Below, one piece after another: positions 27,041-38,510 of a stretch of 38,510 nt of DNA; the stretch's first letter is position 1, and every line of letters starts with the position of its first letter. A program made the position numbers and the translations under genes. The notes beneath the pieces are model-generated. The model saw only the letters and a program-made list of their open reading frames with translations. It had not been told where the DNA came from and did not search any database. The stretch comes from Planctomycetia bacterium. GTDB taxonomy: Bacteria; Planctomycetota; Planctomycetia; Gemmatales; Gemmataceae. Where the stretch lies: NCBI GenBank assembly GCA_005808665.1, contig SYLG01000092.1:1-38510 (forward strand). Direction: 5' to 3'.

Positions 27041-29665
27041 ATGAAATATCCAACCGCCCCCAAAATCCTTGCTTGCTCCCTTTTTGCCCTCCTCCTGTTT
27101 TTTGGCCCTTGGATTCCCTGGGTCCATACCTTCCAGGATCCTCCGGAATCCCTGATCGAAAAACTGGGCGCTCCCGATTTTTCGGCCCGCGAGGAAGCAA
27201 GCCTTGCCCTGGGCAAACTGGGCGAAAAAGCCATCCCCCATCTCGAAAAAGCCAAGGTCCATCCCGATCCCGAAGTCCGCCACCGTGCCAACGAAATTTT
27301 GGAAAGCTTCCGCTTTGGCATCCTCCCCGATACTCCACCCATCCTTCGCACCGCGATGATGGACCTTCGGCGACAATCGACCGAGGAGGGCAGGAGGGCC
27401 GAAATCAGAAAACTCGCCAAGTCCGGAATCCCTGGCCTCCAGAGTTTGGAAAGGCTCGTTAGGCTTTCCCGGAACAACGATGAATCCAAGCAGCTCCTCC
27501 AGGCCATGGTCAAGGAGCTACCTACCCTTTTGGGAACCCTTTGGATCCGCGAATCCAGGGCCGAGGTCCGCCGTTTTCTGGAAGCCTTCGCCCTAACCCA
27601 CGAAGAGATCCTCCCCGAGGAGGTTTACAAATTCCTCACCGTCTGGGATTCCCTTTCCAGGGAGCCCCCCTTGCTACCCCCAGACAGTGAAAAACCGCTG
27701 GTGGCCGCCTTGGGCCTCAGGGTCCTTGGAAAATATTCCGAAGCAGGCAAAAAAGCCGAAACGATCAAAAACAGGGATAGCCTGAGGATGGGTTTTCTGG
27801 TGGAGTCTGGCCTCTGGGCAAGTGCTTTTACCACCCTGAAAAACAGCCCATTGGAAGAAGGCGATGCCGAGTTTCTTGCCCTGGCCTGTATGTTCGAACA
27901 TTTGCTTGGTAATGCCAAAGAATGGGAAAAATGGTTTGAAAAATACTCCAACCACAAAGACTTGACAACCCTCAACGGCCCGGAAAAACTCCCCGCCAAT
28001 CTCAAAATGTTGTTCCTCTGTGATCAACCCGAAAAAGCGATTGCAAAACTAAAGGAATTCCCCCCCGGCCAAAGCTATTTCCAGGTCCTTTCTGCCCGGA
28101 TGGAGCTGGACGATGCCCTGCTTTTGGCAAAAGGCAAAGAGGGAGAAAAAATGCCCCTCGAGCTTGTGATCCAGGCCGGCAAATTAAAAGCCTTATTAGG
28201 ACAAAAAAAGGAGGCTATCGAAACCCTGGCCCCCTTGCGGGCAAAGATCCTTCCCACCGAATCGTTGCCCCTCGTTGAAAGCTTTTTGGAGGCCACCTTG
28301 GCCCACGGCCTGACCGATTTTGCCTGGGAAAGTGCCCTCGCCTGGTTGGAACCTTTGAAAGCGGAGGATTTGCAGGCCAAAATCGTCGCCAAGGCAACCC
28401 ATAACGATTTCGAAAAAATGGGCGACCTTTGCCGCCTCGTTGCTCTCCTCATGGCAGAAACCAAAGAGGTTGATAGGAAAAAAGCCTGGCTAAATGTATT
28501 GCTCGGAAAGGAAAAAGCTGAGGAGGCCAATGCCAAAATCACCCTCCTCCGCGATGTGCTTAACCGACCTGGCCTTCCGGGACAAGCCCCGCCCCGGATG
28601 GCCAAACGAATCCAGCAACTGGCAAAGCTGGCTGGCCACTACAAACAGTTGAACACCCAATTGGCCTTGCTGGCCCCGCCCCACCTCGAACCGGAATTGG
28701 CCCTGGATTATGCTGCCGCCCTTTTGGAATCCTCCCAGGGGGAAAAGACCGTTCCCTTCCTTTTGCCTTTCCTCGAAGCCAATCCGGGAAACTCCCGAGG
28801 CTGGCTCCTCCTGGCCCAGGCCCATTTCCTTGCCAAAAATCCAAAGGAATCGATCCGTTGCCTGGAAGCGGCCATGCTGGTTGGGGCAGGGGATTCAAGG
28901 TCTTTATTGGAGCACATGGCCGAAATGGAGGGGGGCGAAAACCCAAGCCAATCCCTTCGCTGGACATCTATCCTCCTCCAGTCCACCCTCCCGGGTTCCT
29001 TTGAAAGTGGCCGGATCTTTCGCCACCGGGCCAGGTTGTACGCCAATAAAAACCAATTTGTCCCTGCCGCCCAAGCCCAGCTTCAATCGCTGCTCCGGGC
29101 CGCCGACCCCGCGGTCTATTTCATTTCGGTGGGGGCCTACCTGGCCTCGCCGGTTGCCCTGCACCGCTATCTGTTGGAGGCTGCCCTTCTCCAAAACGAT
29201 TTGGAAATGGCCAAGCGCGAAGTGGCCTTGATCTCGCAATACCTCCCCTTTGATGTCGACCTCCCCATTGCGATCCATGAAAAAGCAACCTCACCCGCTA
29301 CCAAAGCCCTGGAGGAACCCCTGTACCGCAAAAGTCGTGACCGCCACCGCACTCTAATCCAAGCCTTTCCCGAAAGTGCATGGCTACGAAATAGTGCCGC
29401 CTGGCTCATGGCGTGTTGTCAAAAAGATCTCGAAGAGGCCATCGTCCACGCCACCAAGGCTACTCAATTGGAACCGGAAAAGGCGGGGTATTGGGACACT
29501 CTGGCCGAGGCCCAATTCCAGGCGGGAAAAATGGCCGAGGCAACCCTTTCCATAAAAAAAGCAATCACTTTGGACCCTCAAAAACAGTATTACAATCGCC
29601 AAATGAAACGGATCCTTGCCGGGGATCGAAATGCCAAACGGTCGGAGGAAGGGGAGGGGGATTAG
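27041..29665 (+). CDS. Large exported HEAT/TPR-repeat protein
   Basis: An N-terminal signal or anchor (LACSLFALLLFFGPWIPWV) is followed by HEAT-like pairs (KLGAPDFSAREEASLALGKLGEKAIPHLEKAK, HPDPEVRHRANEILES) and then some 600 residues of TPR-like helices. The last repeats are clear: NSAAWLMACCQKDLEEAIVHATKATQLEP and DTLAEAQFQAGKMAEATLSIKKAITLDP. Such HEAT-TPR exported proteins are frequent in planctomycetes and probably act as scaffolds; no enzyme motif is seen. The 874-residue reading frame is intact with strong codon bias. Its stop codon is two bases before the first unit of the palindromic repeat array. Confidence 0.8.
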   Translation: MKYPTAPKILACSLFALLLFFGPWIPWVHTFQDPPESLIEKLGAPDFSAREEASLALGKLGEKAIPHLEKAKVHPDPEVRHRANEILESFRFGILPDTPPILRTAMMDLRRQSTEEGRRAEIRKLAKSGIPGLQSLERLVRLSRNNDESKQLLQAMVKELPTLLGTLWIRESRAEVRRFLEAFALTHEEILPEEVYKFLTVWDSLSREPPLLPPDSEKPLVAALGLRVLGKYSEAGKKAETIKNRDSLRMGFLVESGLWASAFTTLKNSPLEEGDAEFLALACMFEHLLGNAKEWEKWFEKYSNHKDLTTLNGPEKLPANLKMLFLCDQPEKAIAKLKEFPPGQSYFQVLSARMELDDALLLAKGKEGEKMPLELVIQAGKLKALLGQKKEAIETLAPLRAKILPTESLPLVESFLEATLAHGLTDFAWESALAWLEPLKAEDLQAKIVAKATHNDFEKMGDLCRLVALLMAETKEVDRKKAWLNVLLGKEKAEEANAKITLLRDVLNRPGLPGQAPPRMAKRIQQLAKLAGHYKQLNTQLALLAPPHLEPELALDYAAALLESSQGEKTVPFLLPFLEANPGNSRGWLLLAQAHFLAKNPKESIRCLEAAMLVGAGDSRSLLEHMAEMEGGENPSQSLRWTSILLQSTLPGSFESGRIFRHRARLYANKNQFVPAAQAQLQSLLRAADPAVYFISVGAYLASPVALHRYLLEAALLQNDLEMAKREVALISQYLPFDVDLPIAIHEKATSPATKALEEPLYRKSRDRHRTLIQAFPESAWLRNSAAWLMACCQKDLEEAIVHATKATQLEPEKAGYWDTLAEAQFQAGKMAEATLSIKKAITLDPQKQYYNRQMKRILAGDRNAKRSEEGEGD

Positions 29666-30073
29666 CCCTGGGAGCGCGGGCATCTTAATGTCCTGTTTCC
29701 TGGGAGCGCGGGCATCCTGCCCGCATCTTAAATCTTCTGGGAGCGCGGGCATCCTGCTCGCATTTTAATGTCCTATTTCCTGGGAGCGCGGGCATCCTGC
29801 CCGCATCTTAAATCTTCTGGGAGCGCGGGCATCCTGCCCGCATCTTAAATCTTCTGGGAGCGCGGGCATCTTGCCCGCTTCTTAAATCTTCTGGGAGCGC
29901 GGGCATCCTGCTCGCATTTTAATGTCCTATTTCCTGGGAGCGCGGGCATCCTGCCCGCATCTTAATTTCCTATTTCCTATTTTCTTTCCCCGGTTTCCTG
30001 GGAGCGCGGGCATCCTGCCCGCATTTTTTGTCCTACTTCCTACTTTCCTTTACTCCGGTCATCCTGCTCGCTT
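29666..30073. repeat. Array of GCGGGCATCCTGCCCGC palindromic repeats, nine full units and one partial
   Basis: Nine units beginning CTGGGAGCGCGGGCATC start at 29668, 29700, 29737, 29780, 29817, 29854, 29891, 29934 and 29998, with a partial one near 30055-30073. Spacings are 32, 37, 43, 37, 37, 37, 43 and 64 bases. Most units contain the inverted repeat GCGGGCA/TGCCCGC with a 3-base loop; copies with TGCTCGC carry one G-U pair, and the first is cut short. The linkers are T-rich (CTTAAATCTTC or TTTAATGTCCTATTTC). This element is dispersed in planctomycete and verrucomicrobial genomes, where wrong translation gives AGILPA peptides. It is not a CRISPR: the spacers are near-identical. The hairpins may end or protect the upstream mRNA. 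Confidence 0.85.
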
Positions 30074-30257
30074 TTCCTCTCTTTTTCCTGCCATTTTTCC
30101 TCTTTCCAAATATTTTTTCTTTTTCCTGAAATCTTTCCCGAGATCCAGGGAAATGGTCTGTAAGCGGGGTCTAGGGACCTTGAATCAGGCAATAAAATGC
30201 GGGCCATTTTTTTTTGGCCCGTTGGAAGATTGCTAAAGTTTGGTTAGGATCAGAAGA
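30074..30257. other. T-rich leader region before the cas operon
   Basis: About 180 bases without a gene, T-rich at first (CTTTTCCTCTCTTTTTCC). It should carry the cas operon promoter. A hairpin CGGGCCA/TGGCCCG with a loop made only of T lies at 30200-30221. No clear -35/-10 pair stands out. Confidence 0.4.
30200..30221. promoter_or_regulatory. Hairpin with T-only loop upstream of cas3
   Basis: CGGGCCA and TGGCCCG are perfect inverted repeats separated by eight T bases, 36 bases before the chosen cas3 start. It has no T-tract after the stem, so it is not a normal terminator on the plus strand. It could be an operator or an RNA structure in the 5' leader; neither is shown. Confidence 0.3.
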
Positions 30258-33005
30258 ATGGCTCATTGTGTCGAGGTCGCCCCAATGCCCGATTCGTTTG
30301 CAAAGTCGTTCGAAATCCTGACAGGTAATAAACCCTTCCCTTGGCAGGAAGAGTTGGCCAAGGAAACCTCATGTAGGACCCGGGTGATTCGTATACCAAC
30401 CGGGTTCGGGAAAACACAAGGTACCCTTGCCGCTTGGGGTTATCATCGCATTAACCGTCAGGATGACCTTTGGCCACGAAGGCTCATTTGGTGTTTGCCA
30501 ATGCGGGTTTTGGTTGAACAAACCGAGCAGGTTGCAAATCAGTTTTTTTCCACAATTCCGGTAAATCAACGCCCCGAAGTCCATGTATTGATGGGAGGCA
30601 AAGATGTTGGCGATTGGTTTCTTTCCCCCGAAAAAAACGCCGTTATCATTGGCACCCAGGATATGCTCCTGTCACGAGCTTTGAACAGGGGTTACGGAAG
30701 CGGAAGGGCTCGTTGGCCACAAGAGTTTGGCCTTTTGAATCATGATGCGTTATGGGTAATGGATGAAGTACAGCTTATGGATGTGGGACTTGCTACTTCC
30801 GCCCAAATTCAGGCGTATCGGGAACAGGATCAAGCCAAAAGCTTTCGCCCTTGTCACACTTGGTGGATGAGTGCAACTTTCCAGGCAAATTGGCTCAGTA
30901 GCGTGGACACGATTTCACACCACGCCGGTTGGATAACCAATCCATGTATCATTCCTTCCAGTCATCGCATGGGCCATTTGTGGGATGTGGAAAAATCTCT
31001 GGTTTGCGATGGGGTTGACCCAAATGACAATAAATCATTTGCTAGTGCTATTCTCCAAAAACATGATGATATTCCCACAAAAAACAACAGTCGCATTACC
31101 TTGGTGGTTTGCAACACCGTCGATCGGGCTTGCGCTACCTATGATGCGTTAAAGGCGAGTGGTCGGAAGGACGAATTGGAGTTGGTTCACAGTCGATTTC
31201 GCCCGGCGGAACGGGAAACTTGGCGGGATCGGTTTTTGTCGCGTGAAAGTTGCACCGGAAAAATAAATCGCATCATTGTTGCAACCCAGGTTGTAGAAGC
31301 TGGAGTCGATATTTCGGCCGATTGCCTTATTACAGAATTGGCGCCTTGGCCAAGCCTGGTCCAACGATTTGGCCGTTGTGCCCGATATGGTGGATATGGA
31401 CAGGTAACTGTGGTCGATAGGAGAGGGGAAAAAGGCCAAACAGCCCCTTATACCACCAAGGAATTGGAAAGTGCTTGGGAATCCATTCAGGGAATGAAGG
31501 ATGTCGGGATTTCTGCTCTGGAACGCTTGGAGGAATCTTTGGATACAAATGCCAAAGAAAGGCTTTACCCCTTCTCCCCCGCCCACCTTCTTCTTCGCAG
31601 CGAGTTTGATGAATTATTTGATACAACCCCCGACTTGACCGGTGCAGACCTTGATATTAGCCGTTTCATTCGCTCGGGTGATGAAAAGGATTTGCAAGTT
31701 TTCTGGCTCGATTTGCCGAAGGACGAAACTCCCCCTGCCAAACGACATCCACACCGGAGGGAGTTGTGTTCCGTTCCTTTCCTGATGGCTCGCGATTGGC
31801 TTTGTGGTGAAGAAACCATTTCCAATCGCAAACCGAAACTTCGGGGCGGAATCCGTGCTTGGGTCTGGGATTGGATTGAAGGCGAATGGTCCGAAGCGAA
31901 CCGGGCAAGCCTTTTTCCTGGTCGGAACGTCTGCGTAGATGCCGCCTGCGGAGGTTATCGGCCTGGTCGTGGATTCGACCCTGATTCGAAAGGACTGGTC
32001 CCGCCTGTTGCTTTGTCCTTGACCCCCCAAGAAAATCAGGAGGCCGATGCGGCGGATGATCAACAGGATGGGGAACAACTGAGCTTTAACCCCTGGAAAA
32101 CCATTGGCTGCCACTCTGCCGAAGTGGCAACGGAGGCCAAAGAAATATCGACCCAATTGGGATTACCCACACCCATTAAAGACACACTCGCTTTGGCTGC
32201 CTGGTGGCATGATTGGGGAAAAGCACACCCGGCATTTCAGGGGGCAATGCAAGGAATTGAGCGACCAGAATCCAACAGCCAGCCAAAGGAATCCTCTTCA
32301 AAAGGGCTTCCCAAGCCTCCAAAGGTCTTTGATCGACCCCACTGTACCGACTTGGCGAAGGGACCAGATAATGCTTGGCGCAAGGGCCCATACAAGTACA
32401 AATATCTCGATAATAGTGACTCTCGCCCGGCATTTCGCCATGAGCTCGCCAGCGCACTTGGGTTAATCGCCATATTGCAAAACTACGCACCCCACCATCC
32501 GGCCCTCCTGGGTCCTTGGTTGGAGGTCCTGGCCCAAATGGGCAGGTCTCCACTGACCAAGGAATCACTTCCCGTTACCTCACCTTTGGTTCAACGGCTC
32601 CTAGACTGTTCCTCAGAAACATTCGATCTTTTGGTCTACCTCGTAGCCAGCCATCACGGCAAAGTTCGTGTCGCCCTGCATGCCGCCCCCAAGGATCAGG
32701 AATACCGCGACAGGGATGGGCGTGGATTGCCCATTCGGGGTGTCCGCGAAGGAGATCGATTGCCGCCGACCACTCTGGTTCCCGGTGAACCGGCTTTACC
32801 CGAGGTAACGCTCACCCTTGCCCCTGCCTCTCTCGGAATTTCACCCAATACGGGAATCAGTTGGCGTGAACGAAGTCAGGGGGTTATGGAACGCCACGGC
32901 CAAACCGGCTTGGCCTTTCTGGAAGCCTTGCTACGGGCTGCTGATGTTCGTGCTTCCAGATTAAAAACCAACGACCCTGCTTTGCCACTGGAGGCAACCC
33001 CATGA
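30258..33005 (+). CDS. cas3: CRISPR-associated helicase/nuclease Cas3, type I-G, HD domain at the C-terminus
   Basis: Cas3 unwinds and degrades the target strand after Cascade binds it. The helicase comes first: Walker A PTGFGKT at residues 47-53, DEVQ box at 169-172, SAT at 205-207, VVCNTVDRA, and the VEAGVDIS and QRFGRCAR motifs. The HD nuclease is at the C-terminus (WWHDWGKAHPAFQ, H651 and D652). In most type I systems HD is N-terminal; the swapped order is typical of I-G (old I-U). ATG 30258 has AGGA 8 bases upstream; ATG 30285 (MPDSFAKSFEILTGN) also fits family starts, and a TTG at 30240 is less likely. The next gene overlaps it by four bases (ATGA). Confidence 0.93.
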   Translation: MAHCVEVAPMPDSFAKSFEILTGNKPFPWQEELAKETSCRTRVIRIPTGFGKTQGTLAAWGYHRINRQDDLWPRRLIWCLPMRVLVEQTEQVANQFFSTIPVNQRPEVHVLMGGKDVGDWFLSPEKNAVIIGTQDMLLSRALNRGYGSGRARWPQEFGLLNHDALWVMDEVQLMDVGLATSAQIQAYREQDQAKSFRPCHTWWMSATFQANWLSSVDTISHHAGWITNPCIIPSSHRMGHLWDVEKSLVCDGVDPNDNKSFASAILQKHDDIPTKNNSRITLVVCNTVDRACATYDALKASGRKDELELVHSRFRPAERETWRDRFLSRESCTGKINRIIVATQVVEAGVDISADCLITELAPWPSLVQRFGRCARYGGYGQVTVVDRRGEKGQTAPYTTKELESAWESIQGMKDVGISALERLEESLDTNAKERLYPFSPAHLLLRSEFDELFDTTPDLTGADLDISRFIRSGDEKDLQVFWLDLPKDETPPAKRHPHRRELCSVPFLMARDWLCGEETISNRKPKLRGGIRAWVWDWIEGEWSEANRASLFPGRNVCVDAACGGYRPGRGFDPDSKGLVPPVALSLTPQENQEADAADDQQDGEQLSFNPWKTIGCHSAEVATEAKEISTQLGLPTPIKDTLALAAWWHDWGKAHPAFQGAMQGIERPESNSQPKESSSKGLPKPPKVFDRPHCTDLAKGPDNAWRKGPYKYKYLDNSDSRPAFRHELASALGLIAILQNYAPHHPALLGPWLEVLAQMGRSPLTKESLPVTSPLVQRLLDCSSETFDLLVYLVASHHGKVRVALHAAPKDQEYRDRDGRGLPIRGVREGDRLPPTTLVPGEPALPEVTLTLAPASLGISPNTGISWRERSQGVMERHGQTGLAFLEALLRAADVRASRLKTNDPALPLEATP

Positions 33006-35452
33006 CCATGCACCTCCATGTCTTGAAGGGATGTTCGCCGGCCCCGCTTGCCAATTACTTGAAAGCCTTGGGAATCCTCCGACTTGTCGGAGAACAAGCG
33101 GATAAACAGGTTCGAGGCTGGTGGGATGGCCAGGCCTTTTGCTTGTTGACATCCCTTTCAAAGGTTGAATTGGAAGTGTTTTTTCTGGAAAAGTATGCTC
33201 CAACCCCATTGCTTTCGCCTTGGAGCAAAGGATGTGGTTTCTTTAAAGAAGAGGATCCTGGACTTGCCCCTCTGGAATCCTCCCAAGCCAAAAGGTTTGA
33301 ATCCTTTCGCCAAGGTATAATCGCCGCACGATGCCTTACAAATGACATAGAAAAAACCGATGCGATCAGTCGCTCAATAAAAGCCCGAACAAAGTCAACA
33401 AAACCCACCGCAAAAAAACCAAATATTGCGTTTCAAACAGAAAAACAACGACAAGAATTAAAACAGTCAGAGCCTTTTATAACCACCATTCAGGACCTTG
33501 AGAGACAATGTGAAAAACCCAATCTTGCGTCAGAAAAAAAAATAAGCTTGGAATCCGAGCTCAAATCCATTCGGGACATTGTTTCTCCCAAAGACAAAAT
33601 TAACCCAGCCGAAGCAAAGTCCTTAAAGGCCTCACCCGGTTACAAACGCCTCCTTGCTGTGGTTGCTCGTAAATACCAAGCCCTCAAAGAAGATGATTTA
33701 ATCCCCAATTGCAGGCGCACTTGGCGAGGGCCCCATGCAATGTGGTTGGCTTCCGCCGTGGTGCTCGACGAAAAGGGCTCCCCAGAATATCCATCTCTTT
33801 TGGGAACGGGAGGAAACGATGGCAGGCTGGACTTTTCAAATAACTTTATGCAACAGTTGGGAAAACTTTTCAATATCCCTTCCCCCGAGGGTGGTCCCTT
33901 GGAACACACTAGGGAACTGCTGGAAAATGCCCTCTGGAGGGAGGCAACCAATCATCTTTCAAGTTCAGCAATCGGACAATTTCAACCCGGGGCCGCCGGA
34001 GGGGCCAATAGTTCAACAGGTGCCGATGGTGATAGTTTGATCAATGCTTGGGATTTTGTCCTGATGCTGGAAGGTTCCTTATTCTTTACCTCCCGATCGA
34101 CCCGGCTACTGGACCCTTCCGGGTTTTCCCGTGCTAGCGCACCTTTTGCCGTTCGCCCCCATGCGGCCGGATTTGCTACCCCAGGCACAGAAAAAGCCCA
34201 ACGCGGCGAACAATGGATGCCTTTTTGGAACCAGCCAGCAACAATTCCAGATGTGGCCGCACTATTCGGAGAAGCCAGGGTCCAACTGAAACGCCAGACC
34301 GCCAATCGTCCGGTGGAAATGGCTCGAGCCATTAGCCGCCTGGGCGTGGCTAGGGGTGTTGATTCCTTTATGCGATACGGGTATCTGGAACGAAATGGCC
34401 AATCAAACTTGGCGGTTCCTTTGGGCTATATCAATGTCAGGCAGCATCCTCGGGCCTATTTATTGGATGACCTTGAAGGCTGGATGGAACGACTTCAATT
34501 TCAAAGCCGTGAAAAAAATGCTCCCAATAGGTTCATTCACGCGGAGCGACAATTGGCAGACGCTACCTTTGCGGCACTAACCCATGATTTTTCACCCGAT
34601 CGATGGCAAGCGATCCTTGAAGCCGCTGCAACCATTGAATCCATTCAGGCGACTGGATCCGCTATCAAGGCAGGTCCGATTCCACCAATCAGCCCGGATT
34701 GGGTTGCCGCAGCCAATGATGGGAGTCCCGAGGTGCGGTTGGCCCTTGCCTTGGGCAGTGCCGCTGCGGAATACACTCCAAATGGAAATCCCATCGATCC
34801 CATCAGGCACCATTGGCTTCCCTTGGAAAAAGGTGCCAGACGATTTAAAACTTCTGACAAACGCCTTTTCAATGACTCCCGGGTTGTCGCTTCGAACCGT
34901 GAACTGTTGTCAGACATGGGTGCCGTCGTTATAAGACGCCTTTTGGAAGCCGCAATGAAAGGGAAACGAAGATCCCAAATGGTGGCAGCAAAGGGCTGTA
35001 GTGCAAAATGGATTGACCTTTCCCATTTTCTTTCTGGTTCAATCAACCTCAACAAAGTGATGAATTTGGCTCGAGCTTTTATGGCAATCAAATGGAATCA
35101 ATGGGCTCCTAAACATTACCTCAGGTCGCCCTTTGGAGCCGAAATCCCCGAAGAAGCATGGTTGGCTGTGCGCCTTGCCTGTCTTCCCTGGCCCCTGGCC
35201 CCGGGCAAAGATATTCCCGCCGATTCCCGAATCGTTCGCCTTTTGATTGCAGGCGAAAGTTCAAGGGCCATTAATGGCGCCCTAATACGGCTCCGTTCGG
35301 TAGGCATCCGTCCCCCTTTGCAGACAGGCTTCACGGATACCCATTCCAGCAGATTATGGACGGCAGCCCTTGCGTTTCCTATTGACCCAAGCAGTGCACT
35401 TCGTGCTGCTTCTACCCTTGACCCCCGTTTGAAAGGTTTACTTCATGCTTGA
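33002..35452 (+). CDS. csx17: Csx17 / Cas8g, large subunit of type I-G Cascade
   Basis: The start (HLHVLKGCSPAPLANYLKALGILRLV, then VRGWWDGQAF) and the inner motifs SLLGTGGNDGRLDFSNNFMQ (about residue 266), GQFQPGAAGGAN (about 325) and NAWDFVLMLEGSLFF are signatures of Csx17, the Cas8-like large subunit that is expected to recognise the PAM and recruit Cas3. A region at about residues 115-235 is rich in Lys, Glu and Gln and looks like an insertion or long helices. At 816 residues it is rather long for the family. Its ATG overlaps the cas3 stop, and its end overlaps cas7 by eight bases, so all are translationally coupled. A second ATG two codons in is an equal candidate. Confidence 0.93.
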   Translation: MTMHLHVLKGCSPAPLANYLKALGILRLVGEQADKQVRGWWDGQAFCLLTSLSKVELEVFFLEKYAPTPLLSPWSKGCGFFKEEDPGLAPLESSQAKRFESFRQGIIAARCLTNDIEKTDAISRSIKARTKSTKPTAKKPNIAFQTEKQRQELKQSEPFITTIQDLERQCEKPNLASEKKISLESELKSIRDIVSPKDKINPAEAKSLKASPGYKRLLAVVARKYQALKEDDLIPNCRRTWRGPHAMWLASAVVLDEKGSPEYPSLLGTGGNDGRLDFSNNFMQQLGKLFNIPSPEGGPLEHTRELLENALWREATNHLSSSAIGQFQPGAAGGANSSTGADGDSLINAWDFVLMLEGSLFFTSRSTRLLDPSGFSRASAPFAVRPHAAGFATPGTEKAQRGEQWMPFWNQPATIPDVAALFGEARVQLKRQTANRPVEMARAISRLGVARGVDSFMRYGYLERNGQSNLAVPLGYINVRQHPRAYLLDDLEGWMERLQFQSREKNAPNRFIHAERQLADATFAALTHDFSPDRWQAILEAAATIESIQATGSAIKAGPIPPISPDWVAAANDGSPEVRLALALGSAAAEYTPNGNPIDPIRHHWLPLEKGARRFKTSDKRLFNDSRVVASNRELLSDMGAVVIRRLLEAAMKGKRRSQMVAAKGCSAKWIDLSHFLSGSINLNKVMNLARAFMAIKWNQWAPKHYLRSPFGAEIPEEAWLAVRLACLPWPLAPGKDIPADSRIVRLLIAGESSRAINGALIRLRSVGIRPPLQTGFTDTHSSRLWTAALAFPIDPSSALRAASTLDPRLKGLLHA

Positions 35453-36533
35453 CCTCAAATCTTTGGAAAAAGCCAACAGGCTTTTATTTTCCGTCCCCCT
35501 TCGTCCCGTCCAAGGCGACCGTTTTCAACCCACTGGTTTTCCCAGTCTTGGTGCGGCAAGTTATCAAACCAAGGATGGGCCAAAACTCCTGGTCGAAAGT
35601 GCCCAAAGCATGGCAAACCGACTGGAAGCCACCTGCTGGGACCGCACAACTAATAAGCCAGTGGCGGTTCTTGACGGCATCAGCCACATCACCATCAATC
35701 GGAAAGGCGCATTCATGACAGATTCCATGTTGGAATCACACCGGATGAATAGCCCTTACATTCTTGAAGGTATACCGAACCAACGCATTGAGCAAGGACC
35801 CGGGGAATCACACCGGATGAATAGCCCTTACATTCTTGAAGGCAAAGAAAAGAAATTTATGGAAACCCTTAAAGGGGAACTGGGCGGACTCGAGGAAGGG
35901 CCCATCGATCCCAAAAAACTTTTGGATGTCCTTTTGAAATATGATGTTGGTAGCCTTCTACACGGAGTTTTCTTCGCAAAAAAGGAACTGGCTGGCGGAA
36001 GGTTGCGCATTGCCAGGGCTTTATCCGCCTTTATTGAAGCTTCAGGCGTCAAAATTGCCGCCTCGGGCGGGGTTAAAAATGACCATGTCAATCCCCAGGG
36101 TGACACAAAAAGTGGCTTCGGCAATGTCCCCTTCTCCCGAGATGAATATGTAGCGGACAAAATCGAATGTCACATCAATTTCGACCTCGCCCAAATCCGG
36201 GGTTACGGTCTTGAACCCAAATTGCAGGACCTACTAATTCTTCTGGCACTTTATCGGCTCCGAAAACTTCTCAATGGAGACCTCCGTTTGCGAACGGCTT
36301 GTGACCTTGAGCCTATCGACAGGGACAATATTGTTGCCCTTCGCCCCATCGGTTACAAATTGCCTTCCCTTTCTGACCTTGAAGAAAGCCTGAAAACCGC
36401 CATCCAAAATGCCAAAGGACGCATGGTTCATTCAACCGTTAACTTCAACGATGAGCTGAAAAAAGGTAAGGAAAAGGAAGAAGGTGGGTCCGGGGATGAT
36501 TCGGATAATGATGATGAAACCGAGGAAGGTTAA
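35445..36533 (+). CDS. cas7: Cas7 (Csb1, GSU0053 family), backbone subunit of type I-G Cascade
   Basis: Cas7 coats the crRNA guide in several copies. Family motifs are plain: VQGDRFQPTGFPSLGAASY, LLVESAQSMANRLEATCWD, KYDVGSLLHGVFFAKKELAG, RIARALSAFIEASGVKIA, SGGVKNDHV and AQIRGYGLEPKL. An odd point is that the segment ESHRMNSPYILEG occurs twice, at residues 97-109 and 121-133, encoded by two identical 39-base stretches with a period of 72 bases. Family members normally have this segment once. The C-terminal 20 residues are acidic (GGSGDDSDNDDETEEG). The start overlaps the csx17 end. Confidence 0.92.
   Translation: MLDLKSLEKANRLLFSVPLRPVQGDRFQPTGFPSLGAASYQTKDGPKLLVESAQSMANRLEATCWDRTTNKPVAVLDGISHITINRKGAFMTDSMLESHRMNSPYILEGIPNQRIEQGPGESHRMNSPYILEGKEKKFMETLKGELGGLEEGPIDPKKLLDVLLKYDVGSLLHGVFFAKKELAGGRLRIARALSAFIEASGVKIAASGGVKNDHVNPQGDTKSGFGNVPFSRDEYVADKIECHINFDLAQIRGYGLEPKLQDLLILLALYRLRKLLNGDLRLRTACDLEPIDRDNIVALRPIGYKLPSLSDLEESLKTAIQNAKGRMVHSTVNFNDELKKGKEKEEGGSGDDSDNDDETEEG
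35732..35842 (+). repeat. Identical 39-base direct repeat inside cas7, period 72 bases
   Basis: Bases 35732-35770 and 35804-35842 are identical over 39 bases and are separated by 33 unrelated bases. The period of 72 keeps the reading frame and adds 24 residues to Cas7. Identity at all positions, synonymous ones included, points to a recent event. Confidence 0.95.
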
Positions 36534-36553
36534 TCCAAACCATAGGAGAGGTT

Positions 36554-38155
36554 GTGCCTACACTTCAACTGAATTTCCCGGCAGGAAAATACCATGCGAC
36601 ACCCTCAGGCCATCATGTCAACGAAGGCCTGATCGAATGGCCACCCAGCCCATGGCGCCTTCTGCGCTCTTTGATTGCAACCGGGTTCTCCTGCCATCAT
36701 TGGTCTGAAATCCCAACCATTGCTAACCGGCTTTTTTGCCGATTGGCAGAATCAAACCCTTCCTATCTACTTCCTGAAGCGAGTATTGCCCACAGCAGGC
36801 ACTTCATGCCCTTGGGAAAGCTTGACAAAGGTCGCGAAAAAACGACTCTTGTCTTTGATACCTGGGCTAATGTCGGAACGGATTCGCTCGTAGTTGCCTG
36901 GAATTGCAAACTATCCTCCGAGGAAACCCAACTCCTCTCCGATCTCGCCTCCACCCTTAATTATTTAGGCCGAAGCGAAAGTTGGGTCGAGGCTACTGTT
37001 ATTCCCGACAATCCCTCCCTGGTTTTCAATGCCTTTCCCCATCAACAAGGGGTTCATGCAGGCCATAATTGGGAACAGGTTTCACTCATGGCGCCGATCC
37101 CAACCGAACAATATTCCCAATGTTTTCAGGAATGGAGAAAGAAGATTCATGCAGATTATCCGCTACCCATGGGTAAAAAGGAACCTCCACTGAAATGGAA
37201 AAAAGACATGGAAATTGCTTTGGCTCCCTATCCGGATAGTCTGTTGAATTGCTTGACCAAGGATACCGCTTGGTGGAAACAGCACGGTTGGTCCCAGCCA
37301 CCCGGTTCCCACCGGGTTCTTTATTGGCGAAAAAGTGATTCCCTTCAGGTGGGAGTGCCCATCCATTCCAAAAAACAGCCCGTCCCTTCCGTAACAACCA
37401 TGTTGCTGGCTCTCACCACTCCCAGTGGAAATCGTTCGGCTTTGCCACCTTGTACACGCACTCTCCCCCAAGCCGAATTGTTTCATCGTGCAATTGTTGC
37501 TCGCGTTGGCAAAGGCGGTCGTATTCATTGTCCCGAATTAACGGGTAAGGATGACCATGGTAAACCACTCCACGACCATCATGACCATGCCCACACCATC
37601 CCTTTAGACCTGGATGGGGATGGCCATTTGGATCATCTCGTTATTTATGCAAAAATGGGACTGAACCATGACGCTCAACAAGCAATCCGCACACTCAGGC
37701 GTACCTGGACCAAGGGGGGCGTGGGCGATATTCAATTAGCACTTGCCGGTTATGGAAACATTGACTTCCTTCGGAATTTACCCCCGCCTTTGGATGCTTC
37801 TATCGAAAAAATCCTTGGGTCTTCCACAGGATCCCTTGTTTGGGAAAGCCTTACCCCTTTTGTTCCGCCCAGATTCCTGAAACCGCGTGGAAAAAACTCC
37901 CTTTTGGGTCAAGTCAATGCTGAACTTCTGTCCCGAAACCTCCCTGAGGTTGCCTCCCTGGAACGCATTCCCTTGGAACTTTTGAAACAATCCTTTCGCC
38001 ATTTTGTTCGGCGAAGATTCCACGGAGGATCCCTCCCCCCTGTCGATTCTGGTTTTGGATTAAAATTGACCTTTTCTGAACCCATTTCAGGTCCGCTATT
38101 GCTTGGCTATGCCTCCCACTACGGCCTTGGTATGTTTCAGGCAGTAAACCCTTAA
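36554..38155 (+). CDS. csb2: Csb2 (GSU0054 family), Cas5-Cas6 fusion of type I-G
   Basis: The N-terminus (LQLNFPAGKYHATPSGHHVNEGLIEWPPSPWRLLRSL) is a near-perfect Csb2 start and forms the Cas5-like part, which caps the 5' end of the crRNA. In type I-G the same protein carries a Cas6-like part that cuts the pre-crRNA, and there is no separate cas6 here. A His/Asp-rich stretch at about residues 335-360 (HDHHDHAHTIPLD, then LDGDGHLDH) may bind metal. The C-terminal glycine-rich end GYASHYGLGMFQAVNP is like the G-loop of RAMP proteins. The start is GTG 36554 with AGGAG just upstream, 20 bases after cas7. It has 533 residues. Confidence 0.92.
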   Translation: MPTLQLNFPAGKYHATPSGHHVNEGLIEWPPSPWRLLRSLIATGFSCHHWSEIPTIANRLFCRLAESNPSYLLPEASIAHSRHFMPLGKLDKGREKTTLVFDTWANVGTDSLVVAWNCKLSSEETQLLSDLASTLNYLGRSESWVEATVIPDNPSLVFNAFPHQQGVHAGHNWEQVSLMAPIPTEQYSQCFQEWRKKIHADYPLPMGKKEPPLKWKKDMEIALAPYPDSLLNCLTKDTAWWKQHGWSQPPGSHRVLYWRKSDSLQVGVPIHSKKQPVPSVTTMLLALTTPSGNRSALPPCTRTLPQAELFHRAIVARVGKGGRIHCPELTGKDDHGKPLHDHHDHAHTIPLDLDGDGHLDHLVIYAKMGLNHDAQQAIRTLRRTWTKGGVGDIQLALAGYGNIDFLRNLPPPLDASIEKILGSSTGSLVWESLTPFVPPRFLKPRGKNSLLGQVNAELLSRNLPEVASLERIPLELLKQSFRHFVRRRFHGGSLPPVDSGFGLKLTFSEPISGPLLLGYASHYGLGMFQAVNP

Positions 38156-38510
38156 AGGACTTTGCCTGGGCCATACCACCTAGCCTCCGCCCCTCCGCCT
38201 GAAACAAGGCAGCCATCCCCACTCCCGCTGCCACCTCTTCCCCGCCTCATTGGCCCCCAAATCCCCGCCCGTCTCCGCACCTCCGCCTGAGATTGCCTTC
38301 TTCCGGAAGAAACTCCGTGAAATCTCCCCTCCGCATGAACCAACCTCCCCACCACCCACCAACCCACATTTAACCCAAGTTACGCAGTTGGGACCATGAA
38401 AACCGTGTTTTTCCCGGGAAAAAGTTAAATCAGGCTGCAAAAGTCGGGACTACAAATCCTCTTTACAGGTTCTGTTTCAAGGCGTTTGATCCTGATTGGC
38501 GAGAGACTGA
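38156..38510. other. Downstream region of csb2 with palindromes and repeat fragments; possible CRISPR leader
   Basis: No gene is seen in these 355 bases; open frames on the minus strand are low-complexity. The first part is C-rich and holds an 18-base near-duplicate (38185-38202 and 38273-38290, one mismatch) of CTCCGC/CCTCCGCCTGA type. Two perfect palindromes follow: TTCTTCCGGAAGAA at 38298-38311 and TTTTTCCCGGGAAAAA at 38408-38423. The last 37 bases may be a CRISPR repeat. In type I-G loci the next genes are often cas4-cas1 and cas2, which are not present here. Confidence 0.5.
38474..38510. CRISPR. Possible first CRISPR repeat at the window edge (single copy)
   Basis: The stretch starts GTTTCAAGGCG and ends GAGAC (TGA follows), the kind of ends common in type I repeats, and is 34-37 bases long. 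It lies about 320 bases after csb2. Only one copy is visible because the window stops, and no internal palindrome is clear, so repetition is not shown. This is a guess from end sequences and position. Confidence 0.2.

What the first reader, a model, noticed from the sequence alone, without database searches (positions are those of the whole stretch)
35732..35842. In-frame duplication of a signature motif inside Cas7 (Csb1)
A 39-base block coding for ESHRMNSPYILEG occurs twice with full identity and a 72-base period, adding 24 residues to the crRNA-coating subunit. The two blocks flank a new linker (IPNQRIEQGP). The motif lies in a family-conserved segment, so a second copy in every backbone subunit would change Cascade geometry or create a tolerated loop. 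The identity suggests a young event, and recombination between copies could switch it off and on.
Basis: partly seen in the sequence, partly recalled or inferred. Interest (0 to 1): 0.62.

Follow-up and report, generated by a model that had tools for sequence, protein, structure and literature searches.

The report
CRISPR spacer written into its Cas7
A bacterium's CRISPR memory-writing enzyme appears to have mis-inserted a 36-letter memory into the gene for its own Cas7 protein, copying the target site just as it does in a CRISPR array and adding 24 in-frame amino acids, which would be a rare natural example of off-target CRISPR integration changing a protein.

Summary
Csb1/Cas7g (35445-36533) carries an exact 39-nt direct repeat (35732-35770, 35804-35842; period 72) around an insert found nowhere else in the genome, adding 24 residues in frame. 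All other Csb1 proteins aligned have one copy. It is not a simple tandem duplication, because the insert resembles neither flank. The anatomy is that of one type I-G CRISPR repeat-spacer-repeat unit: arrays of relatives use 36-nt repeats with a modal period of 72, ending ATTGAAG(C/G/T). Of the four 36-nt registers inside the 39-nt block, one (35735-35770, ending CTTGAAGG) resembles I-G repeats and ranks in the top 0.02% of window sites; the insert is then exactly 36 nt. Best explanation: off-target spacer integration by a Cas4/1-Cas2 complex into the Cas7 gene. The scar probably makes no crRNA (no repeat hairpin) and is modelled as a disordered loop on an otherwise normal Cas7 fold. Gaps: no protospacer was found, and cas1, cas2 and the array are missing from this draft genome, whose contig ends 355 nt after csb2. 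Off-target integration is a known kind of event; a natural, in-frame one inside a cas gene seems new.

The parts
35445..36533 (+). csb1 (cas7g), 362 codons, with a 24-residue addition
   Evidence: ORF; TIGR02570 and PF09617 hits in two stretches; PADLOC Cas7g; PDB 8ane
35735..35770 (+). first copy of the inferred 36-nt target site (neo-repeat), ending CTTGAAGG; the exact identity extends 3 nt to the left, to 35732
   Evidence: Direct repeat; the only register resembling I-G repeats
35771..35806 (+). inferred 36-nt spacer TATACCGAACCAACGCATTGAGCAAGGACCCGGGGA (33 nt if the duplicated site is 39 nt)
   Evidence: Unlike both flanks; single copy in the genome; no protospacer found
35807..35842 (+). 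second copy of the inferred 36-nt target site (exact identity from 35804)
   Evidence: Direct repeat, 100% identical to the first copy
30240..33005 (+). cas3g (neighbour; interference gene)
   Evidence: TIGR02621
33002..35452 (+). cas8g/csx17 (neighbour)
   Evidence: TIGR04113
36554..38155 (+). csb2, Cas5/6-like crRNA-processing subunit (neighbour)
   Evidence: TIGR02165

Best explanation
The 72-nt addition is the scar of one off-target (non-canonical) spacer integration into csb1 by a type I-G adaptation complex (Cas4/1 fusion + Cas2). The complex mistook the csb1 stretch ATCACACCGGATGAATAGCCCTTACATTCTTGAAGG for a CRISPR repeat. It attacked both strands 36 nt apart and joined in a 36-nt prespacer; gap filling duplicated the 36-nt site on either side, as in a normal array. 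Because 36+36 = 72 = 24 codons and this spacer holds no in-frame stop, the gene stayed open and Cas7 gained 24 residues. Shown: the anatomy, empty sites in relatives, the match to the I-G unit size, the register at TTGAAGG, and the lack of a repeat hairpin. Inferred: that Cas4/1-Cas2 did it, that the insert came from foreign DNA, and that Cas7 tolerates the loop. Recombination between the copies could restore the original gene (inferred).
For: Exact 39-nt direct repeat, period 72, around an insert unlike both flanks. Single copy in all other Csb1 proteins aligned. Relatives' I-G arrays: 36-nt repeats, period mode 72 of 339 units, 3' end ATTGAAG(C/G/T), AATTGAAGG in G027. All 18 I-G repeats compared fit best in the register ending TTGAAGG; mean identity in the top 16 of 76,950 window sites. 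Published: I-G repeat 36 nt and mature crRNA 72 nt (PMC9638904); I-G Cas4/1-Cas2 integrates part of its prespacers at wrong sites in vitro (PMC10274657). Only isolated direct repeat of its kind in 1.50 Mb of this genome.
Against: No cas1, cas2 or I-G array in the assembled genome, so the own repeat could not be compared; the contig ends 355 nt after csb2. No protospacer found. Identity runs 39 nt, not 36, which needs about 3 chance matches (roughly 5%) or a sloppy cut. The resemblance of the site to I-G repeats is partial, 13-20 of 36. No likeness to relatives' leaders was seen upstream. The hypothesis was formed after seeing the period.
Confidence: 0.74

Rival explanations
1. Error-prone repair of a staggered double-strand break: 36-39-nt overhangs were filled in and 33-36 nt of captured or template-switched filler DNA was joined between them, without any CRISPR enzyme.
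For: Gives the same outline, a duplicated site flanking unrelated DNA; no Cas1 in the assembly.
Against: Does not predict period 72, a 36-nt unit or the TTGAAGG boundary. No other isolated repeat of similar size and period in 1.50 Mb of this genome. No template for the filler of 12 nt or more in the window and none in the genome at up to 3 mismatches over 33 nt.
Confidence: 0.15
2. Assembly or chimera artefact in a metagenome-assembled genome.
For: Draft genome of 186 contigs; no reads available here; a 39-nt repeat can confuse short-k assembly.
Against: A repeat collapse or expansion would not bring in 33 nt of unrelated sequence found nowhere else in the genome, keep the frame, and fit CRISPR geometry.
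Confidence: 0.05
3. A selected structural innovation: a duplicated motif and linker kept because they change the Cas7 backbone, for example against anti-CRISPR proteins, whatever made them.
For: The ORF is intact and in frame, and the rest of the operon is intact.
Against: Seen in one genome only; the loop is predicted with very low confidence; identical copies suggest a recent event with little time for selection.
Confidence: 0.04
4. Old 72-nt tandem duplication whose linker half has since diverged.
For: Period and in-frame length.
Against: The linker is no more like either flank than shuffles, while the adjoining 39 nt show no change at all.
Confidence: 0.02

Closest known systems
Off-target spacer integration / spontaneous CRISPR loci (Nivala, Shipman and Church 2018, Nat Microbiol 3:310; not held here, known from citations and from memory)
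   Same: Genomic site of repeat length duplicated around a spacer-length insert, at a place resembling the native repeat.
   Different: Here type I-G instead of type I-E, in a cas gene, in frame so that the protein is lengthened, and seen as a natural allele; the inserting enzyme and the protospacer are not identified.
Canonical type I-G CRISPR array unit
   Same: 36-nt repeat + 36-nt spacer = 72 nt, repeat 3' end TTGAAG(G/C).
   Different: No palindromic hairpin, no leader likeness seen, one spacer only, and translated.
Ectopic spacer acquisition within arrays (S. thermophilus, PMC7999890, PMC5338259; titles and abstracts only)
   Same: Spacer placed at a site other than the leader end.
   Different: There it is inside an existing array at true repeats; here it is in a protein gene.
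Cas7 of the type I-G effector, PDB 8ane
   Same: Same family and fold, TM 0.75/0.85, 51% identity in the structural alignment.
   Different: 8ane has one EAHRLNSPYILEG segment and no 24-residue addition.

Membership tests
Off-target CRISPR spacer integration | Target site of repeat length duplicated exactly | tested here: met
   39-nt identity containing a 36-nt register; relatives' I-G repeats are 36 nt
Off-target CRISPR spacer integration | Insert of spacer length, unrelated to the flanks | tested here: met
   36 nt in register (33 at least), total 72 = array mode
Off-target CRISPR spacer integration | Empty site in relatives | tested here: met
   Single copy in all other Csb1 proteins aligned
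Off-target CRISPR spacer integration | Site resembles the native repeat | tested here: met
   Against relatives' I-G repeats only: one register, top 0.02% of window sites; the own repeat is unknown
Off-target CRISPR spacer integration | Insert traceable to a protospacer with PAM | tested here: inconclusive
   None found in IMG/VR (exact 20-22-mers), phages, plasmids or own genome; most spacers have no known source
Off-target CRISPR spacer integration | Adaptation genes in the same cell | tested here: inconclusive
   No Cas1/Cas2 hit in the draft assembly, whose contig ends just after csb2; Cas1 found in 10 of 18 genomes searched
Functional CRISPR array | Repeat forms a hairpin for crRNA processing | tested here: not met
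   MFE -2.9 kcal/mol, z 0.30, against -10.6 to -14.5 for true I-G repeats
Csb1/Cas7g | Family profile and fold | tested here: met
   TIGR02570 83 bits (cut-off 38), PF09617 138 bits (cut-off 25), 8ane fold match
Tandem duplication | Whole 72-nt unit repeated head to tail | tested here: not met
   Linker unlike both flanks

The most novel reading that the evidence does not exclude
Type I-G adaptation complexes act as natural in-frame protein mutagens: because their unit is most often 72 nt (24 codons), off-target spacers can add 24-residue cassettes to coding genes, here a reversible loop on every Cas7 backbone subunit that alters or switches the cell's own CRISPR interference.
Probability: 0.1. 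Interest if true: 0.85.

Novelty: new variant of a known kind. Interest (0 to 1): 0.6.

Why it matters
Natural off-target spacer integrations are rarely documented, and I found no paper reporting one inside a cas gene. It would show that CRISPR adaptation can mutate its own interference genes, give an in vivo footprint of what a I-G Cas4/1-Cas2 complex accepts as a site (a TTGAAG end, 36-nt spacing, no palindrome needed), and suggest a simple genome screen for such scars.

Tried and rejected
Simple tandem duplication: rejected, the linker is unrelated to both flanks. Insert copied from elsewhere in the genome: rejected for the assembled part. Protospacer search in IMG/VR, phages and plasmids: nothing above chance. 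Own CRISPR array by periodic TTGAAG patterns and by GGCCNNATTGAAG: no array and no repeat-like context; the C144 hits are a 69-nt-period repeat. Cas1 and Cas2 in the own genome: none. New array that makes crRNA: rejected, no repeat hairpin. Rfam hits in 29000-38510: none. Resemblance to relatives' leaders: none seen by eye. A second look by VIA-align was started and not collected.

Full report
Observation. The 39-nt block GGAATCACACCGGATGAATAGCCCTTACATTCTTGAAGG occurs exactly twice, at 35732-35770 and 35804-35842, with period 72, in frame in a 362-codon csb1 gene. The gene is Csb1/Cas7g by TIGR02570, PF09617 and PADLOC. Its neighbours are cas3g, cas8g/csx17 and csb2: a type I-G interference operon. 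The window is a whole contig of a 4.48-Mb draft genome of 186 contigs. Judging by relatives of its family that are the same contigs as named Gemmata and Gemmataceae MAGs, the family is probably Gemmataceae (inference).

Relatives. All other Csb1 proteins aligned, from several genera of the same family, from Gammaproteobacteria, Deltaproteobacteria and others, have a single copy...TDSML-EAHRLNSPYLLEGK.... So does PDB 8ane. The 24-residue addition is therefore derived, and seen only here.

Not a tandem duplication. A tandem duplication of 72 nt would leave the linker repeated in one of the flanks. It matches the 33 nt before copy 1 at 7 of 33 and those after copy 2 at 12 of 33, no better than shuffles even with sliding, while the 39 nt beside it are identical. 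The linker has no other copy in the genome with up to 3 mismatches and no 12-nt template in the window. So DNA of unknown source sits between two copies of a duplicated site.

CRISPR geometry. I-G arrays of relatives have 36-nt repeats. Over 339 units the period runs from 70 to 82, mode 72 (30%), with 71-73 covering 68%; the repeats end ATTGAAG(C/G/T), or GTTGAAGC in one case. Published I-G repeats are 36 nt and mature crRNAs 72 nt (PMC9638904). I-G prespacers tested in vitro had a 22-bp duplex and were integrated with 7-nt overhangs, which makes 36 nt (PMC10274657). The csb1 unit is 72 nt. A 36-nt target can sit in four registers inside the 39 identical nt. All 18 I-G repeats compared match best in one register, 35735-35770 (ATCACACC...CTTGAAGG), at 13-20 of 36 positions without gaps; the other registers give 5-13. 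Mean identity there is in the top 16 of 76,950 sites of the window, both strands, the two copies included (2e-4; about 8e-4 for four registers). A position weight matrix gives 4e-4 before correction. In this register the insert, 35771-35806, is exactly 36 nt.

Background. In 1.50 Mb of the same genome, 11 isolated direct-repeat pairs of 24 nt or more with an insert between exist. Only the csb1 pair is longer than 26 nt with a period under 100. In 633 kb of related I-G neighbourhoods, all isolated pairs of 36 nt or more with period 72-74 were short CRISPR arrays.

Mechanism. I conclude that a I-G Cas4/1-Cas2 complex integrated a spacer off target into csb1. In vitro such a complex puts 10-20% of leader-side and 30-40% of spacer-side events at wrong sites for a pre-processed prespacer (PMC10274657), so the activity exists. 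The csb1 36-mer has no repeat hairpin (MFE -2.9 kcal/mol against -10.6 to -14.5 for true repeats). Csb2 should therefore not process it, and it is a scar, not a working array. Because 72 is a multiple of 3 and there is no in-frame stop, the protein is extended. AlphaFold2 (19 sequences, mean pLDDT 77.7) leaves residues 98-122, the first copy plus linker, at pLDDT below 50. It places the second copy in the family position and matches 8ane with TM 0.75/0.85. The alignment itself favours the second copy, so the choice of copy is not independent. A tolerated loop is the likely outcome; function was not tested.

Weak points. The own genome draft contains no cas1, cas2 or I-G array. The contig stops 355 nt after csb2. 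Of 18 genomes searched, 10 had Cas1; in several (for example G013 and G022) the Cas4/1-sized ORF lies on another contig than csb1. The module may be unassembled or lost. No protospacer was found. The identity is 39 rather than 36 nt. The idea came after seeing the period, so the register test is the more independent support.

Precedent and novelty. Off-target integration in E. coli, with putative natural cases, was reported by Nivala et al. 2018 (not held in the library; cited; details from memory). Ectopic acquisition within arrays is reported in S. thermophilus. I found no report of an integration inside a cas gene or one preserving a protein frame, but most subscription papers are not in the library. 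I rate it a new variant of a known kind.

Noticed in passing
L052:13317-13420 (G022:C55, Gemmata MAG SKYG68): Isolated intergenic direct-repeat pair, 32 nt exact, period 72, about 7 kb from a I-G operon; read as 36-mers the first copy ends CACTTGAAGA. Possibly another off-target spacer scar, or a dispersed repeat.
   Followed up: partly
L071:9546-9646 (G022:C86): Isolated intergenic 27-nt direct-repeat pair, period 74, 2-3 kb from a Cas4/1-sized gene of the same genome.
   Followed up: partly
L123:3179-3274 (G000:C16): In the window's own genome, an isolated 25-nt exact direct-repeat pair (longer with mismatches), period 71, apparently intergenic; it does not end in TTGAAG.
   Followed up: partly
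window 29680-29965: Tandem repeats of a GCGGGCATCCTGCCCGC-containing unit (periods 37/80/117) just upstream of cas3; not CRISPR-like in sequence.
   Followed up: no
L001 (NKPT01000017.1): The closest Csb1 (78% identity in the alignment, 72% in the best tblastn segment) sits on a contig labelled Chloracidobacterium CP2_5A, in another phylum than the other close relatives: transfer or mis-binning.
   Followed up: no
L018-L023 (G000:C144:9304-9792): Tandem repeat of 69-nt period starting TTGAAGA, possibly coding for 23-residue protein repeats.
   Followed up: no
window 38156-38510: The contig ends 355 nt after csb2, with no cas4/1, cas2 or CRISPR array on it or found elsewhere in the assembly.
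   Followed up: yes
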